NCBI GenBank assembly: GCA_028293545.1
Contig: JAQGOP010000007.1
Location: forward strand, 1-64,000
DNA length: 64,000 nt
Source of the DNA: Verrucomicrobiota bacterium
GTDB lineage: Bacteria > Verrucomicrobiota > Verrucomicrobiia > Opitutales > Opitutaceae
Reading direction: 5' to 3'
The translations under genes and the position numbers were made by a program. The stretch's first letter is position 1, and every line of letters begins with the position of its first letter. Below the pieces are notes generated by a model. It did no database searches, was not told where the DNA came from, and saw only the letters and a list, made by a program, of their open reading frames with translations. This document shows, in pieces, positions 45,322 through 53,637 of this stretch.

Positions 45322-46107
45322 ATGAAGATTGATTTGAATGGCAAAGTTGCCCTGGTCACCGGCGGCGCCATGGGCATCGGCCGGAAGATTGCCGAACTGC
45401 TGGCTGAAAATGGCGCGAAGGTCGTCGTCGCCGATATCAACGAGGCCGCCGCCCGGGAAACCTCCGCTTCCATCCCCGGCTCAAAGGCGCTCCGGATGGA
45501 TGTGGCTTCAGCCGACGAAGTCGCTGCCGCCGTCGACTCAATCGTGCGCGACTGGGGTCGCATCGACATCCTCGTCAACAACGCCGGGATCAACACCGGC
45601 AAGAATCGCGTCACGATCGACCAGTTTTCCGTCGAGGAATGGGATCGGATCATGTCCGTCGACCTGCGCGGCCTGTTCCTCGTGAGCCGGTCCGTTGCCG
45701 CCGTGATGCTTCGCCAGTCGAGCGGTCGCATCATCAATATTTCCTCGGTCCTGGGCGTGGTGCCCGCGCGGCTGCAATGCGCCTACACGACGGCGAAAGC
45801 GGGGGTCGCGCATCTCACGCGGACGATGGCGATCGAACTCGGCGATCGTGGGATCCTGACGAACGCGATTGCCCCCGGTTCGGTCGTCACCGCCGGCACC
45901 AAGGCCCTGTTCTATGCCAAGGATGCGTTCCAAGCGGAGAAGGCCAAGCGCATGCTGGCCCATATTCCCCTCGGCCGCGCCGGCGAGGTGGAGGAGATCG
46001 CGAACGCGGTCCTCTTCTTCGCCGCGCCGGAAAGCAGTTATATCAACGGCCAAGTCCTGTGCGTCGATGGCGGCTGGGCGGCCGGCGGTTTCCTGCGCGA
46101 TTTTTGA
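45322..46107 (+). CDS. SDR-family oxidoreductase 1
   Basis: From ATG 45322 the product has 261 residues of the classical short-chain dehydrogenase type: cofactor motif TGGAMGIG, DxNEAAA after the second strand (aspartate suggests NAD preference), NNAGI, and the catalytic Ser in INISSVLG with Y-T-T-A-K. The C-terminus (YINGQVLCVDGGW) is typical. Its job in this cluster is likely oxidation of a sugar or sugar acid. It is followed after 23 bp by a hydroxyacid dehydrogenase and then a GPH transporter, which form one rightward operon. Confidence 0.9.
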   Translation: MKIDLNGKVALVTGGAMGIGRKIAELLAENGAKVVVADINEAAARETSASIPGSKALRMDVASADEVAAAVDSIVRDWGRIDILVNNAGINTGKNRVTIDQFSVEEWDRIMSVDLRGLFLVSRSVAAVMLRQSSGRIINISSVLGVVPARLQCAYTTAKAGVAHLTRTMAIELGDRGILTNAIAPGSVVTAGTKALFYAKDAFQAEKAKRMLAHIPLGRAGEVEEIANAVLFFAAPESSYINGQVLCVDGGWAAGGFLRDF

Positions 46108-46130: not shown

Positions 46131-47093
46131 ATGCCCTACAAGATCGTCGTCACCGACTACAGTTTCCCCGACCTCAGCATTGAGCAGGAAATCCTGGCTC
46201 CCTTTGATGTGACCTGGGAGACCGCACAATGCCGCACGATCGAGGAAGTAACGGCCCTCACGCGCGACGCGACGGTCATCATCGCCCAGTTTGCCCCCGT
46301 GCGGGCGGCGACGATTTCCACCCTGAAGAATACCCGCGCGATCATCCGCTACGGGATCGGGGTGGACAACGTCGACCTCGCCGCTGCGGCCGCGCAGAAA
46401 ATTCCGGTCTGCAACGTGCCCGATTACTGCCTGGACGAAGTGGCCGAGCACACGCTCGCGTTTGTCCTGGCCCTTACGCGCCAGGTTGTGGCCAACGCCG
46501 TGGTCATCAGCGGTGGCGAATGGAAATCAGCCGTCCCGATCGAAGGCTACCGCTGCCTGAAGGACATGACCGTGGGCGTGGTGGGATTTGGCCGGATCGG
46601 ACGCGGAGTCATCCAGCGCCTCATCCCGTTCGGCTGCCGGGTCGTCGTTTTTGACCCGATGGTCCCGGCCTCGGCGGTGGAAGCGATGGGCGCAAAGCAG
46701 ATGGGCTTGGAGGATCTTTTGGCGCGGAGCGACCTCGTCACGCTGCATTGCCCGAGCCTGCCATCGACAAAGGGCATGATCAACCAGGCCGCGTTGCAGC
46801 GGATGAAGCGCGGGTCGTTGCTGGTGAATGCATCGCGCGGGGATCTCATTGTGACCGATGACTTGGTTGCGGCGCTCCGATCGGGCCAGATCGCGGGGGC
46901 GGCGCTCGATGTGACCAGCCCGGAGCCTTTGCCGAAGGAAAGCCCGCTGAGGACGATGCCGCAGGTGATCATCAGCCCGCACGTCGCCTCGGCGACGCCA
47001 CAGGCCGGTCGTCGTTTGCGGGAATCCGTGGCGAACCTCGCGGTTTTGGCGGTGCAGGGAAAACCGCTCAAGAACGTGGTCAACGGCGTATGA
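46131..47093 (+). CDS. D-isomer-specific 2-hydroxyacid dehydrogenase
   Basis: The 320-residue enzyme has a split catalytic domain around a Rossmann domain (VGVVGFGRIGRGVIQRL). Catalytic features are the arginine in VNASRGDLI, the glutamate region DVTSPEPLP and the histidine in ISPHVASATPQA. It is the length of C-terminal-binding-protein/phosphoglycerate dehydrogenase-like members without regulatory domains. It reduces 2-oxo acids or oxidises D-2-hydroxy acids with NAD(H). Here it sits in an operon with an SDR and a transporter, so a sugar-acid role is more likely than serine synthesis. The exact substrate is unknown. Confidence 0.9.
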   Translation: MPYKIVVTDYSFPDLSIEQEILAPFDVTWETAQCRTIEEVTALTRDATVIIAQFAPVRAATISTLKNTRAIIRYGIGVDNVDLAAAAAQKIPVCNVPDYCLDEVAEHTLAFVLALTRQVVANAVVISGGEWKSAVPIEGYRCLKDMTVGVVGFGRIGRGVIQRLIPFGCRVVVFDPMVPASAVEAMGAKQMGLEDLLARSDLVTLHCPSLPSTKGMINQAALQRMKRGSLLVNASRGDLIVTDDLVAALRSGQIAGAALDVTSPEPLPKESPLRTMPQVIISPHVASATPQAGRRLRESVANLAVLAVQGKPLKNVVNGV

Positions 47094-48646: not shown

Positions 48647-49525
48647 TTATCGTTTCGGTTTCTCCGAAACGGTTTCCGGCATCAGCGGTTGCAATCGTGT
48701 CCTGCGACGTGGGTCCTTTCGGAAGAGGCGCATCTTCCCGTACTCGACGGGACAGAACATATCCGCGATTCCCTCGAGCACCAGGTTGGTCCGGAAAAGG
48801 CGGTCGGGAAGGGAGTTGTCGGGAAAGAGATCGTGGTGGCATGGCACCACCCACCGCGGCCCGATTGCCTTGGCGAGCCGGGCGGCTTCGCGTGGGGAAA
48901 GGTTTCGGAACGCGGGGTTGATCACGCTGACCATCACGTCCGGTTGAAATGGAGCCACGCTGAGGCTCAGGATTTCGTTGTAGTCGGTGTCGCCGGTGAA
49001 GTAAATCCGCGGCCCGCCGCGCACCTCGACCAGGTAGCCGATGTGGGTGAGATCGTCTCCGCCGAACGGAATCGCGAACGTGGCGCGGAGGGTGAAGTCG
49101 CCGATCCGATGGGCGCGATTCGGCCACATCAAGGTGATGCGCCCCGCATCGGCGCCCAAATTCACGAGGCGAGCTGCGGCTTCGTGGGGCGCAACCAATG
49201 CCCCGGCGCCGCCGGCGCGCAAATAGGGCACCACCGTCTCGGGATCGACGTGGTCCTGGTGACTATGGGTGAAGAGGATTCCGTCGAACCCGACGAGCTC
49301 TTGCGGCCGCAACGCCGTTGGCAGCATGCGGCGCAGATTGAGGCCGGCGGCCTTGCCCACCGCCTCGCACGAATTGCTCAGGTACGGGTCGAGCGCGAGG
49401 CAGCAACCTTGCGGGCTCTTCAACACGAAGCCGGCTTGCCCCAGCCAGCCCAAGGCCACGGATCCCGAAGGAACCCGCAATGCGGCAAGGGAACGGCTGA
49501 GTTTTGTGGGGAAAGTTTTTTTCAC
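48647..49525 (-). CDS. UlaG-like metallo-beta-lactamase-fold hydrolase
   Basis: The 292-residue protein (GTG start at 49525) has the metal motif THSHQDHVD (H87, H89, D91, H92), GDTDYNE for the bridging aspartate, and a later VVPCHHD histidine. The opening GWLGQAGFVLKS and the layout match the L-ascorbate-6-phosphate lactonase UlaG group. It likely opens a sugar lactone or sugar-phosphate ring in the cytoplasm. It is the last gene of the leftward operon with E1, E2 and the FAH-family hydrolase, 28 bp after the latter, and so probably acts before it in a sugar-acid route. Confidence 0.85.
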   Translation of the reverse strand: MKKTFPTKLSRSLAALRVPSGSVALGWLGQAGFVLKSPQGCCLALDPYLSNSCEAVGKAAGLNLRRMLPTALRPQELVGFDGILFTHSHQDHVDPETVVPYLRAGGAGALVAPHEAAARLVNLGADAGRITLMWPNRAHRIGDFTLRATFAIPFGGDDLTHIGYLVEVRGGPRIYFTGDTDYNEILSLSVAPFQPDVMVSVINPAFRNLSPREAARLAKAIGPRWVVPCHHDLFPDNSLPDRLFRTNLVLEGIADMFCPVEYGKMRLFRKDPRRRTRLQPLMPETVSEKPKR

Positions 49526-49553: not shown

Positions 49554-50363
49554 TCAGGCCGATTCGCCTTGGACCGGGTTGGTCAGCGAACCGATTTTTT
49601 CGATTTCCACCGTGACGACGTCGCCGACCTTGAGGAACACCGGTGGTTTCCGCGCGACACCGACTCCTTGCGGGGTGCCCGTGAGGATCACGGTGCCGGG
49701 AAGCAGCGTGGTGCTGCTGCTCAGGAACTCGATCAGCGCGGGCACGTTGAAAATCATGTCCGAGGTGTTGGAATCCTGCATGGTCGCTCCGTTCAGCAGG
49801 GTGCGGATGCGCAGGGTGTTCGGATCCGGGATCTCGTCCGCAGTGACGAGGCACGGGCCCAGCGGCGCGAAGGTGTCGAACGTCTTGCCGCGGCACCATT
49901 GGCTGCCGCCCCATTTTCCCTGCCAGTCGCGCGCGCTGATGTCGTTCGCGCACGCATAGCCCAGCACGTGCTCGAGGGCGTTCGCGCGCGTGGCGTTCTT
50001 GCACGTTTTCCCGATCACTACCGCGAGCTCACATTCGAAATCCACCTCGGTGCTCTTGAGGAAACGCGAGGGAATGATGACGGGCTGCCCGGGATGCTGG
50101 ACCGCGCCGGGACTCTTGAAAAATAGCACCGGGTTTTCCGGGATCGGCGATCCCGTTTCGATGGCGTGCTGCCGATAGTTCAGCCCGATGCACAGGAAAA
50201 CCGTGGGGACGAGCGGGGCGAGCAGCTGCTTGATGTCGGCCGGGACCTGGGTCGCCTCCCGCGCGGAAAAGAGGTTTCCCCGCATTTCCATCGTGCGGCC
50301 ATCGGCCTGCTGCACGCCGTGTTTGATCGTTCCGGAAGAATCGAGATATCGGATGATTTTCAT
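49554..50363 (-). CDS. Fumarylacetoacetate hydrolase-family enzyme
   Basis: From ATG 50363 the product has 269 residues. Metal ligands are in STEVDFECELAVVIGK (E and E), and the DISARDWQGKWGGSQW and FLCIGLNYRQHA segments are typical of the family. LTGTPQGVG is near the end. Family members hydrolyse 2,4-dioxo acids (acylpyruvases, 2,4-diketo-3-deoxy-L-fuconate hydrolase) or act as 2-keto-3-deoxy-pentonate dehydratases. Product pyruvate would suit the E1/E2 dehydrogenase 10 bp upstream in the same operon. The in-frame extension to 50450 is rejected because it overlaps the E2 gene. Confidence 0.9.
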   Translation of the reverse strand: MKIIRYLDSSGTIKHGVQQADGRTMEMRGNLFSAREATQVPADIKQLLAPLVPTVFLCIGLNYRQHAIETGSPIPENPVLFFKSPGAVQHPGQPVIIPSRFLKSTEVDFECELAVVIGKTCKNATRANALEHVLGYACANDISARDWQGKWGGSQWCRGKTFDTFAPLGPCLVTADEIPDPNTLRIRTLLNGATMQDSNTSDMIFNVPALIEFLSSSTTLLPGTVILTGTPQGVGVARKPPVFLKVGDVVTVEIEKIGSLTNPVQGESA

Positions 50364-50373
50364 GAAAAAGGAA

Positions 50374-51198
50374 TCAGTGGCGGATGAATTCCGCCGGGCG
50401 GAGCAGGATCGCCTGCAGCCGCGCCAGGAACTGCGCCGCACCTTTCCCATCGATGATGCGATGGTCGCAGCTGAGCGTCAGGGTCAGCGCTTTCCCCACG
50501 GCCAGTTTCCCGGATTGGACCACCGCGGCGTCGCGCAACGCCCCGACGGCGAGGATTGCCGCCTCCGGTGGATTGATGATCGCGCTGAACTCATCGGCGC
50601 CGAACATCCCAAGGTTACTGACGCTGAAAACCGTGGGGCACGCCGTTTGGGGCCGGCGTTCGCGTGCCAGCGCAACGACCCGCCGAGTCTCCAGCGCCAG
50701 GGCGCGCAGCCCCAGCTGGTCGGCCTTGGCGATCGGTGCGACGACCACGCCTTCGTCGAGGCCGACGGCCAGCCCGATGTTCGCATCGGGGAGCTCCACG
50801 AGGACGTCGTCCTCGAGCCGGCAGCGGAAATCGGCGAACTCGCTCGCGGCCATGGCCGACGCCTGCACGATGATGTCATTGAGGCTGCACGGAAAGAGCG
50901 CCTTGCACGTGATGTAGAACTCCGCGAGCGCACCGGCGTCGATCGTCTGGCGAATATAGAAATGCGGAATGGTTTGCTTCGACTGCAGCAGCCGCCGTGC
51001 GATCGTGCGGCGCATCGCGCTCAGCGGGCGGGTCCGGCCGTGGGTCCGCGCGGGAGTTTTGACGGCGGCAGCGACATCCGCCGCCACAATCCGGCCATTG
51101 GGTCCTGATCCGCGCAGGGTGACAGCGTCGATGCCGGCGGCGCGGAGCGCCCGCCGGGCCCGTGGCGTCATTGGGCCGGCCATGGTGGAGGTGGACAT
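50374..51198 (-). CDS. 2-oxoacid dehydrogenase E2 acyltransferase lacking a lipoyl domain
   Basis: The 274-residue protein begins with a peripheral-subunit-binding domain (about 10-48, TPRARRALRAAGIDA ... GPNGRIVAADV). The CoA-dependent acyltransferase core follows (from about 57, SAMRRTIARRLLQSKQTIPHFY), ending with the catalytic histidine H246 and D250 in SCDHRIIDGKGA. Usual E2 proteins have one to three N-terminal lipoyl domains; none is present, and the start is a clean ATG 9 bp after the E1 gene stop. The lipoyl domain is instead at the end of E1. The two must therefore work as a pair: E1 supplies the swinging arm and E2 transfers the acyl group to CoA. Confidence 0.92.
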   Translation of the reverse strand: MSTSTMAGPMTPRARRALRAAGIDAVTLRGSGPNGRIVAADVAAAVKTPARTHGRTRPLSAMRRTIARRLLQSKQTIPHFYIRQTIDAGALAEFYITCKALFPCSLNDIIVQASAMAASEFADFRCRLEDDVLVELPDANIGLAVGLDEGVVVAPIAKADQLGLRALALETRRVVALARERRPQTACPTVFSVSNLGMFGADEFSAIINPPEAAILAVGALRDAAVVQSGKLAVGKALTLTLSCDHRIIDGKGAAQFLARLQAILLRPAEFIRH

Positions 51199-51207
51199 CG
51201 CCGGCGG

Positions 51208-53637
51208 TCAGTTCGGTTTGATGACGGCGAGCCCCTGGCCCATTTTCACGATCGTTCCTTCTGGAACGAGCCGGGCGACGAGCACGCCGGCGACGGCGGA
51301 ATCGACCGCCATGACGGCTTTGTCGGTTTCGACATCGAGGACGGTTTCGCCGTTGGCGACAGGGTCGCCGACCTGCTTGTACCACTTGACGACGGTGGCT
51401 TCCGTGACGGTGAGATCGCCATGCGGCATGCTGAGTAATTCCCCTTCCGGCACCGCGGCGGCAGCCGGGGCCGGGGGAGCGGGCGCGGCCGGCGTGATGG
51501 CTTCAACCGGCGGGGCAGACGGCTTCGAGGGTGCGGGAGGCAGCGCGACAGCCGGAGCGGCTGGACCGCTCGCTTTTGTGCCCTTGGCTCGCCGCGCCAC
51601 CGGCGCGATGCCGGCGATTACGCTCTTCGCCGCTGTGACGATCTTGTCGCGCGTGATTGCGATCGTCTCTTCCAACGTCGCGTTCACCGGATGCGAGACG
51701 GGATCGGTGTGAAGCCGGCCGATCGGGCCGTCCAATTCGTCGAACGCGAGCTCCATCATGGATTGCGCGATCTCAGCGCCGATTCCGCACATGCTGTAAC
51801 CTTCGTCGGCCACGAGCAGGTGGCCGGTCTTCGTCAGGCTTGCCGCGATCGTGTCGACGTCGAGCGGGACCAGGGTCCGGAGGTCAATTACCTCGCAGAA
51901 AACGCCTTCCTTTTCGAGCAACACGGCGGCTTCCAAGGCGAGGATCACGATCTGTCCCGCGGCGACGATCGTGAGATGTGTTCCCTCCCGGGCGATCCGG
52001 GCCTGGCCGAAGGGGACCATGTGTTCGCCGACGGGAACTTCGCCCTTGGAGGCGAAGAGTGATTTCGGCTCGAGGAAAATCACCGGGTCGTAGGCGCGCA
52101 GCGCGGTCTTCATGAGACCCTTGGCGTCGGCGGCATTGGACGGCATCGCCACGATGAGCCCGGGGACATGCGACCACATCGGGTGATAGGATCCGCTGTG
52201 ATGGGGGCCCGCGCCGCGGACGGCGCCCGACGCCGCCCGGATCACCATGGGTGCGCTCATCTGGCCGTTGCTCATGTACCGGAGCTTCGCGGCCTGCAGC
52301 ACGACCTGGCCGGCGGCTTCAAAGAGGAACTCGATGAACATCAGGTCGGCGACGGCGCGGCAGCCGGTGGCCGATGCGCCCAAGGCTGCGCCGGTGAAGC
52401 CGAGTTCGCTGATGGGTGTGTCGATGACCCGGCCGCCCCCGAATTCCTTCCACAGGTTTTTCGTATGCGCGAAACTGCCGCCGCGCTCGCCGATGCCTTC
52501 ACCGAGATAAATCATGTTCGGGTCGCGGCGCATTTCCTCCGCGATGCCATCCCGCACGGCGTCGAGCCAGCCTTGGACCACCGGCTTTCCCGTCGGCGCG
52601 GGAGGCATCGGGGGATTGAGCGGGTCGTGCCAGGTGTGCAGGTGCGCGCGCGCGGGATCGGGTTCGGGGGAGGCGTGTGAAAACTGGGTGGCCTCGTTCA
52701 TCTGCGCTTTGAAACGCTGCTCGATCGCGTCGAGCTCGGCCGCGGTCGCGATGCCAAACTCGTCGGTCAGCCGCCGGCGGAAAGCGACGATCGGATCGCG
52801 CTTCTTCCATTCGTCGACTTCCGCCTGCGTGCGGTAGGATCCGGTGACGGGATCGCCTTCGTGGTGGCCGACCGTGCGATAGGTTCGCGCTTCGATGAGT
52901 GTCGGCCCGTGGCCGGCGCGGGCCCGATCCATTGCAGTCTTCGTCGCCTGCCAGACCGCGACCACGTCGTTGCCGTCCACCGCCACGCCGGGAATGCCGT
53001 GCGCGGCGGCCTTGCTGGAAATATCGGTGTTGAGCGTCGCCACAGTCAGGGGCGTGGCGGTGGCGTAGAGATTATTTTCGCACACGAATACGACGGGTGC
53101 GTGCTGGACCCCGGCGAAATTGATCGATTCATGGAACGACCCGCTGTTCGAGCCGCCGTCGCCGAAGAACGCGACCGCGACCTGGCCGCTCTTGCGCACC
53201 GTGGCGGAGATGGCCGCCCCGACGGCGGACGGATTGCCGCCGCACACGATGCCGTTGGTTCCAAAGAGGCCGATTTTGGGATCATACAAATGCATGCTCC
53301 CGCCGCGGCCTTCGCAGCAGCCCGTGCCTTTGCCATACAACTCCGCCATCAGCACCTTGGGATCCATGCCCTTGGCCAAGGCGTGGCCGTGGCCGCGGTG
53401 CGTGCTGGTGATCCAATCGCGGGAAGTGAGATGCGCGCAGACGCCGACCGCCGTCGCTTCTTCGCCGATATACAGGTGGACGAATTTGATCTCCCCGGTC
53501 TTGCATTTTTCCTGGGCACTGAGTTCGAACTGCCGCAGGAGAACCATTTTTTCGAAGAGCTGCATGAGCTGTTCGCGGTCGAGCCCCGGGGGGAGGGATT
53601 GGGTCGGATTCGACCGGGTTTTATTGGCCGTATTCAT
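51208..53637 (-). CDS. Fused E1-alpha / E1-beta / lipoyl domain 2-oxoacid dehydrogenase
   Basis: The 809-residue protein combines three units. E1-alpha (about 15-335) has the ThDP motif GDGGSNSGSFHE ... CENN and the phosphorylation-loop-like RTYRTVGHHEGDP. E1-beta (about 355-665) has YLGEGIGERGGSFAHT, DTPISELGFTGAALG and GPHHSGSYHP, with DEGYSMCGIGAEIAQ in the C-terminal part. A linker rich in Ala and Pro (about 680-730) leads to a C-terminal lipoyl domain with K773 in DVETDKAVM. The enzyme decarboxylates pyruvate, a branched 2-oxo acid or acetoin and loads its own lipoyl arm. The E2 encoded 9 bp downstream has no lipoyl domain. No E3 gene is in the window. Confidence 0.93.
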   Translation of the reverse strand: MNTANKTRSNPTQSLPPGLDREQLMQLFEKMVLLRQFELSAQEKCKTGEIKFVHLYIGEEATAVGVCAHLTSRDWITSTHRGHGHALAKGMDPKVLMAELYGKGTGCCEGRGGSMHLYDPKIGLFGTNGIVCGGNPSAVGAAISATVRKSGQVAVAFFGDGGSNSGSFHESINFAGVQHAPVVFVCENNLYATATPLTVATLNTDISSKAAAHGIPGVAVDGNDVVAVWQATKTAMDRARAGHGPTLIEARTYRTVGHHEGDPVTGSYRTQAEVDEWKKRDPIVAFRRRLTDEFGIATAAELDAIEQRFKAQMNEATQFSHASPEPDPARAHLHTWHDPLNPPMPPAPTGKPVVQGWLDAVRDGIAEEMRRDPNMIYLGEGIGERGGSFAHTKNLWKEFGGGRVIDTPISELGFTGAALGASATGCRAVADLMFIEFLFEAAGQVVLQAAKLRYMSNGQMSAPMVIRAASGAVRGAGPHHSGSYHPMWSHVPGLIVAMPSNAADAKGLMKTALRAYDPVIFLEPKSLFASKGEVPVGEHMVPFGQARIAREGTHLTIVAAGQIVILALEAAVLLEKEGVFCEVIDLRTLVPLDVDTIAASLTKTGHLLVADEGYSMCGIGAEIAQSMMELAFDELDGPIGRLHTDPVSHPVNATLEETIAITRDKIVTAAKSVIAGIAPVARRAKGTKASGPAAPAVALPPAPSKPSAPPVEAITPAAPAPPAPAAAAVPEGELLSMPHGDLTVTEATVVKWYKQVGDPVANGETVLDVETDKAVMAVDSAVAGVLVARLVPEGTIVKMGQGLAVIKPN

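What the first reader, a model, noticed from the sequence alone, without database searches (positions are those of the whole stretch)
50374..53637. 2-oxoacid dehydrogenase with lipoyl domain moved from E2 to a fused E1-alpha/beta
E1-alpha and E1-beta are one 809-residue protein that ends in a complete lipoyl domain (K773), while the adjacent E2 starts directly with its binding domain and has no lipoyl domain. E1 would load its own swinging arm and E2 would take the acyl group from another protein. Lipoyl domains are known on some E1-beta N-termini, but a fused E1 with a C-terminal lipoyl domain plus lipoyl-less E2 is unusual to my knowledge.
Basis: partly seen in the sequence, partly recalled or inferred. 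Interest (0 to 1): 0.75.

Follow-up and report, generated by a model that had tools for sequence, protein, structure and literature searches.

The report
Dehydrogenase E1 with built-in lipoyl arm
In some Verrucomicrobia and Planctomycetes the first enzyme of a keto-acid-burning complex carries the swinging cofactor arm that normally sits on the second enzyme, and the second enzyme encoded beside it is either an armless version or missing.

Summary
The 809-aa protein is E1-alpha + E1-beta + a complete C-terminal lipoyl domain (LD, K773); the adjacent 274-aa E2 has a binding and a catalytic domain but no LD. It is not an artefact: 15 genomes carry E1-LD with its LD visible, the lipoyl lysine is kept in 15 of 15, and the 14 that could be placed in a tree form one clade (100/99). 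Its sister clade is fused E1 without LD beside ordinary LD-bearing E2s.

"LD moved from this E2" needs changing. An LD-less E2 directly follows E1-LD in 5 of 15 genomes; none is seen next to it in 9; 1 is undecidable. The five LD-less E2s do not share one origin (AU p = 0.004). The window's E2 derives from a planctomycete-type LD-LD-PSBD-CAT E2, a type held by three genomes whose E1-LD has no E2 beside it. The arm on E1 is the stable feature; the E2 is recruited and stripped, or borrowed.

Best reading: a self-armed E1 in a sugar-acid cluster that charges its own arm and delivers the acyl group to a dedicated LD-less E2 here, or to a shared core elsewhere. New variant of a known kind; no biochemistry.

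The parts
51208..53637 (-). E1-LD gene: fused E1-alpha/E1-beta with C-terminal lipoyl domain, 809 aa
   Evidence: Pfam; relatives
52654..53550 (-). E1-alpha (E1_dh) domain, residues 30-328, with GDG...NN stretch and loop YRTVGHHEGDP
   Evidence: domain; sequence; loop; the ThDP meaning of GDG/NN is recalled
51640..52569 (-). E1-beta (Transket_pyr + Transketolase_C), residues 357-666
51430..51636 (-). Ala/Pro-rich linker, 69 residues (668-736), 54% A+P
51220..51429 (-). lipoyl domain, residues 737-806 of E1-LD (own HMM; Pfam 743-806)
51319..51321 (-). codon of K773, predicted lipoylated lysine (ETDKA)
51199..51207 (-). 9-base gap between E1 stop (TGA) and E2 ATG; same frame
50374..51198 (-). 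LD-less E2, 274 aa
51073..51168 (-). E2 peripheral subunit-binding domain, residues 11-42
50386..51036 (-). E2 catalytic acyltransferase domain, residues 55-271, DHRIIDG
49554..50363 (-). FAA-hydrolase family gene, conserved neighbour (7 of 13 loci)
46131..47093 (+). D-2-hydroxyacid dehydrogenase family gene, conserved neighbour (6 of 13 loci)
45322..46107 (+). SDR gene, conserved neighbour
48647..49525 (-). metallo-beta-lactamase-fold gene, 50% identical to one in the Phycisphaerae cluster L044
54183..55007 (+). second SDR, 51% identical to one in L044

Best explanation
A self-armed E1. The fused alpha/beta E1 decarboxylates a 2-oxo acid with thiamine diphosphate and reductively acylates the lipoyl group on K773 of its own C-terminal lipoyl domain (or that of a neighbouring subunit), held by a 69-residue Ala/Pro-rich linker. 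The charged arm then visits an E2 catalytic core in trans: in this genome the dedicated LD-less E2 encoded 9 bases downstream, whose binding domain can dock E1 or E3; in relatives without such a gene, probably a housekeeping E2 core. A shared E3 reoxidises the arm. The arm on E1 arose once in this clade and is conserved, while LD-less E2s were recruited at least twice and probably three times, the window's copy from an LD-LD-PSBD-CAT E2 of planctomycete type that lost its own arms. Gene neighbours place the enzyme in a sugar-acid catabolic pathway; the substrate (pyruvate, hydroxypyruvate or another 2-oxo acid) is inferred, not shown. Shown here: domain layout, conservation, E1 monophyly, more than one E2 origin, absence of an E2 gene in the flanks of 9 of 15. 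Inferred: all catalysis, partner choice, substrate.
For: Domains. LD fold. Lipoyl lysine kept in 15 of 15 E1-LD proteins with a visible LD, linker 58-77 aa in the same 15. E1-LD is one clade, 100/99 (14 with LD plus two contig-cut copies; G255 left out because its gene is broken over frames), and joins, 100/99, a clade of LD-less fused E1 beside LD-PSBD-CAT E2. E2 follows directly and is LD-less in 5 of 15; each pair has a candidate E2 start codon between -5 and +25 nt of the E1 stop, so the two are probably translated together. DHRxxDG is intact in 4 of 5; the fifth is cut by a contig end before the motif. Window E2 lies in the clade of E2s from G252, G419 and G810 (100/99), 53% identical over the catalytic domain to that of G252. 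AU tests reject one origin of all five LD-less E2s (p 0.004), of the window's with those of G255, G274 and G769 (0.003) and of the window's with that of G560 (0.0016). Precedent for an acyltransferase using a lipoyl group borne by another protein: Corynebacterium OdhA depends on the lipoyl groups of AceF (passages in PMC8146983, PMC7568260, PMC10415282).
Against: No biochemistry, expression or lipoylation data. Nearly all genomes used are drafts in many contigs. The window's E2 has no evident ribosome-binding site in the 16 bases before its start (by eye). The CAT trees rest on 210 columns with long branches; the placement of the G560 E2 is weak (97/51), so three origins is less secure than two. 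Two of the 9 genomes without an adjacent E2 have LD-less acyltransferase genes elsewhere with altered active-site motifs (G419 L108 DHRIANG; G810 L143 VDQRLVD), plus one fragment each that could not be judged (L110, L134); any of these might be a partner. No E3 gene among the called window genes between 45 and 62 kb. E1-LD genes of the same genus (G004, G006, G009, G011) share only the SDR of the sugar-acid neighbours, so the pathway assignment may not hold for all.
Confidence: 0.7

Rival explanations
1. A simple gene-boundary shift: an ancestral operon fused E1 | LD-PSBD-CAT lost the E1 stop and gained a stop/start between LD and PSBD, so LD moved from this very E2 to E1.
For: Sister clade has fused E1 followed at once by LD-PSBD-CAT E2; the order E1-LD then PSBD-CAT is exactly what such a shift gives; the window's E2 is in frame with E1.
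Against: No LD-less E2 groups with the sister clade's E2s; the five LD-less E2s are not one clade; E1-LD's LD is not closest to the sister's LD; frame match is 1 of 5 pairs.
Confidence: 0.12
2. Sequencing or assembly artefact: a false stop splits a single E1-LD-PSBD-CAT protein, or a frame error cuts the LD from E2.
For: In-frame TGA between LD and PSBD in the window; single-chain E1-LD-CAT proteins do exist in the same genus.
Against: Four other pairs have E2 in a different frame with overlapping or closely spaced stop and start; 9 of 15 relatives end in the LD with no E2 in the fetched flanks. No reads were available to test the TGA itself.
Confidence: 0.04
3. E1-LD acts without any E2: the acyl group leaves the lipoyl arm to another acceptor or is hydrolysed, and the adjacent E2 is accessory.
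For: 9 of 15 have no E2 in the fetched flanks; in G002, G004, G006, G009, G252 and G501 every acyltransferase domain that the genome search found carries its own LD.
Against: LD-less E2s with intact catalytic motif were placed directly behind E1-LD at least twice, which suggests selection for an E2 partner; at least one LD-bearing E2 is present in each of those six genomes (same calls).
Confidence: 0.1

Closest known systems
Canonical alpha2beta2-type 2-oxo acid dehydrogenase complexes (PDH/BCKDH/acetoin dehydrogenase)
   Same: E1-alpha and E1-beta domains, LD, PSBD and CAT all present; the best NCBIfam matches, all below cut-off, are PDH E1 subunits and PDH E2
   Different: LD is on E1, not on E2; alpha and beta fused; often no dedicated E2 nearby
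PDH E1-beta with N-terminal LD (NF008854/PRK11892 type; that this family bears an N-terminal LD, in alphaproteobacteria, is recalled)
   Same: LD covalently on E1; NF008854 is the top NCBIfam match, 373.7 bits
   Different: Below the 454-bit cut-off; its best stretch covers profile 118-462 only (a second stretch passed, place not shown). Here the LD is C-terminal, alpha is fused, and E2 has no LD
Corynebacterium OdhA / mycobacterial Kgd
   Same: An acyltransferase domain served by a lipoyl group carried on another protein (AceF) (passages)
   Different: There CAT is fused N-terminally to E1o and the LD stays on the PDH E2; here the LD is on E1 and E2 is separate
E3 with LD (Neisseria P64K)
   Same: LD on another component; its LD structure (1gjx) is a hit of the LD model
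   Different: On E3, not E1; its E2 was not examined here
Single-chain E1a-E1b-LD-CAT proteins of the same genus (L081 in this genome, 1036 aa)
   Same: E1a, E1b, LD in the same order
   Different: CAT on the same chain, no PSBD detected, about 30% identity, separate clade

Membership tests
alpha2beta2-type 2-oxo acid dehydrogenase complex | E1_dh + Transket_pyr + Transketolase_C domains | tested here: met
alpha2beta2-type 2-oxo acid dehydrogenase complex | LD N-terminal on E2 | tested here: not met
   E2 has PSBD and CAT only; same in 5 of 5 E2s directly behind an E1-LD
alpha2beta2-type 2-oxo acid dehydrogenase complex | PSBD and CAT with DHRxxDG on E2 | tested here: met
alpha2beta2-type 2-oxo acid dehydrogenase complex | E3 (dihydrolipoamide dehydrogenase) available | not tested
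   none among the called genes at 45-62 kb; the rest of the genome was not searched for it
alpha2beta2-type 2-oxo acid dehydrogenase complex | overall 2-oxo acid:CoA:NAD activity | not testable with these tools
   needs enzymology
E1-beta with N-terminal LD (NF008854) | score above the family cut-off; LD before the transketolase-like domains | tested here: not met
   373.7 of 454 bits; LD lies after Transketolase_C
OdhA/Kgd two-in-one E1o | CAT fused to a 2-oxoglutarate-type E1 | tested here: not met
   CAT is a separate gene; 2-oxoglutarate E1 models match at 19-31 bits against cut-offs of 764-878
lipoyl domain | lipoyl fold with lysine in the ETDKA turn | tested here: met
   actual lipoylation not testable here

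The most novel reading that the evidence does not exclude
A family of E2-agnostic, self-armed E1 enzymes: the swinging arm belongs to E1, so one E1 can plug a pathway-specific 2-oxo acid into whatever acyltransferase core the cell has. Dedicated LD-less E2s are later, repeated add-ons made by stripping the arms from housekeeping E2s.
Probability: 0.45. Interest if true: 0.78.

Novelty: new variant of a known kind. Interest (0 to 1): 0.6.

Why it matters
Textbook 2-oxo acid dehydrogenases put the lipoyl arm on E2, the structural core. A conserved clade in which the arm sits on E1, and in which E2 is replaceable or not encoded nearby, tests whether channelling depends on who owns the arm. It also gives a natural case of how different E1s may share one E2 core; how the same lipoyl domains serve several active sites is called an open question for the actinobacterial PDH/ODH supercomplex (PMC10415282, passage).

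Tried and rejected
UGA read-through or one fused polypeptide: rejected as a general explanation, frames differ in 4 of 5 pairs.

LD-less E2 as one ancestral partner, inherited and then lost: rejected by the AU tests. E2 adjacency needs at least 3 changes on the E1 tree (4 rows present, 9 absent; G423, G254 and G011, whose contig ends hide the answer, and G255, which is not in that tree, were left out).

Whole-protein AlphaFold2 model: pLDDT 38.1 with 4 rows, discarded.

LD donor by similarity: inconclusive (ten E1-LD lipoyl domains queried).

Plasmids: 712 records match the query, all below 60% identity. In the 40 rows seen, most matches stop at about residue 677; those that reach the LD region (Mycetohabitans) run over separately annotated genes, including an acetoin dehydrogenase E2.

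Distribution counts are lower bounds: the phylum search missed G255 itself, whose E1-LD gene is broken over several frames in a low-coverage contig, and a planned search of the window's own phylum failed and could not be repeated.

Literature: no paper describing an E1 with a C-terminal LD plus an LD-less E2 appeared in the listings of searches (open-licence PMC only). Listings were read, and passages of four papers; one search was a listing on sugar-acid pathways.
Full report
What is there. On the minus strand, 51208-53637 encodes an 809-residue protein with E1-alpha, E1-beta and a lipoyl domain in that order. [quoted passage not shown] The LD folds as a lipoyl domain in a prediction from a 21-row alignment (pLDDT 85.8) and matches solved lipoyl domains at TM about 0.9. 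The E2 active-site motif DHRIIDG is intact.

Is it real? The genome is a draft (G000, 84% complete, 63 contigs), probably Opitutaceae, since its near relatives L042 and L043 are titled Opitutaceae and Opitutae. I found E1-LD genes with their LD visible in 15 genomes, at 52-72% identity to the query used. Six are G000, four of its genus (G002, G004, G006, G009) and G253 (L042). Nine come from genomes titled, or searched as class or phylum of, Planctomycetota: G252, G255, G274, G419, G423, G501, G560, G769, G810. Two more are cut off before the LD by contig ends (G011, G254). Within the genus the E1 is in 6 of 12 genomes, G000 counted. In larger samples E1-LD is in 2 of 223 of the order (4 matches, two without LD), 5 of 298 of the class of G252, G252 counted, and 3 of 294 of the phylum of G255 (6 matches, three without LD). 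These are lower bounds: G255 itself was missed. In 15 of 15 the LD ends within 9 residues of the C-terminus, keeps its lysine, and follows a 58-77-residue linker.

The E2. An LD-less E2 directly follows E1-LD in 5 of 15 (G000, G255, G274, G769, G560; in G769 it is cut by the contig end). In 9 of 15 no acyltransferase domain lies in the fetched flanks: G002, G004, G006, G009, G252, G253, G419, G501, G810. Flanks vary. In G253 only about 0.9 kb downstream is held, but an FAA hydrolase gene follows at once; in G002 the contig begins inside the gene. G423 is undecidable, with about 0.1 kb after the gene. Whole-genome searches show that in G002, G004, G006, G009, G252 and G501 every acyltransferase domain found carries its own LD. 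In G253 one of two is cut by a contig end and groups with an LD-bearing PDH-type E2. G419 and G810 each have an LD-less acyltransferase gene elsewhere, both with altered active-site motifs, and one fragment each that could not be judged.

History. In a 58-row tree of E1-alpha plus E1-beta, without the LD, the 14 E1-LD proteins that could be included and the two cut copies form one branch (100/99). Together with a clade of fused E1 without LD, whose next gene is an ordinary LD-PSBD-CAT E2, they form a branch of 100/99. The Opitutaceae-side sequences nest among those from Planctomycetota genomes, which suggests transfer (inference, the nearest fork outside them has 85/42). In trees of the acyltransferase domain (59 and 60 rows) the LD-less E2s fall in three places: G255+G274+G769 together (100/98), G560 apart (weakly placed), and the window's E2 inside the clade of LD-LD-PSBD-CAT E2s of G252, G419 and G810 (100/99). 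Forcing the five together is rejected (p 0.004), as are the window with the first three (0.003) and with G560 (0.0016). The window's E2 is 53% identical to that of G252 over the catalytic domain and 47% over PSBD plus CAT. G252, G419 and G810 are genomes whose own E1-LD has no adjacent E2, and the one E2 found in G252 is of this type. So the type of E2 I would expect those E1-LDs to borrow is the type from which the window's dedicated E2 was made, with its arms lost. This is the strongest indirect argument for use of a housekeeping core in trans.

Function. Neighbour genes conserved between the window and the Phycisphaerae cluster L044 are two SDRs, a D-2-hydroxyacid dehydrogenase, an MBL-fold protein, an FAA hydrolase and Ldh2-family dehydrogenases, at 43-56% identity. 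Of 13 E1-LD loci compared (window and the cut copy L077 included; several on short contigs), an FAA hydrolase lies nearby in 7 and a D-2-hydroxyacid dehydrogenase in 6. The genus loci of G009, G006 and G011 share only the SDR, as does G004 apart from a second, weaker SDR match. The sister clade shares some of these neighbours too (L120, L122). From general knowledge of FAA-type cleavage of 2,4-diketo sugar acids (recalled; one search gave only a listing, on L-fucose), such a cluster yields pyruvate plus a 2-hydroxy acid, and E1-LD would take a 2-oxo acid from it. The TPP loop GHHEGDP resembles GHFEGDP and GHFVGDP in L051 and L045; reading this as acetoin-dehydrogenase-like is from memory and unproven.

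Mechanism. E1 charges its own tethered arm, the arm visits an E2 core in trans, and E3 reoxidises it. An acyltransferase served by another protein's lipoyl group is known for OdhA, which depends on AceF (passages in PMC8146983, PMC7568260, PMC10415282). LDs on E1-beta N-termini are recalled from alphaproteobacteria; the NCBIfam model taken to represent them scores below cut-off here, its best stretch from position 118 on. I found no description of the present arrangement in the open-licence library (listings of searches).

Verdict. A real, conserved, uncommon architecture: a new variant of a known kind. The more surprising part is not that an LD sits on E1 but that E1 keeps the arm while E2 is repeatedly replaced or not encoded nearby.

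Noticed in passing
L081 4337-7444(-) (own genome, G000:C14); also L035, L036, L038, L041: Single polypeptides of about 1040 aa with E1a-E1b-LD-CAT in one chain and no PSBD detected; CAT and LD share a frame of 1034-1076 aa in 11 of 12 genus genomes, all but G001. A DHRxxDG-like motif was not found in the own copy and reads DHRIVNG in L036. G810 has a similar E1b-LD-CAT frame (L139).
   Followed up: partly
L080 5412-5894(-) (own genome, G000:C23): Free-standing 161-aa LD-PSBD protein with no catalytic domain. Small frames with a biotin/lipoyl domain (about 160-240 aa) occur in the other genus genomes, but their PSBDs and orthology were not tested and some are probably biotin carriers.
   Followed up: no
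L079 4963-16350 (own genome, G000:C32): Separate E1a and E1b genes and an LD-CAT E2 without detected PSBD, interspersed with genes whose products look like phytanoyl-CoA-type dioxygenases (by eye). In G009:C21 and G004:C118 the LD frame near split E1a/E1b has no catalytic-domain match.
   Followed up: no
L143 610-1698(+) (G810:C867): LD-less E2-like gene with PSBD-like stretches and the catalytic His apparently replaced (VDQRLVD), in a genome whose E1-LD has no adjacent E2.
   Followed up: partly
L119 11395-12612(+) (G560): LD-less E2 with two PSBD-like stretches before the catalytic domain, following E1-LD.
   Followed up: partly
window 51199-51210: E1 stop TGA and the E2 start are in the same frame, 9 bases apart, unlike the other four pairs.
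   Followed up: yes
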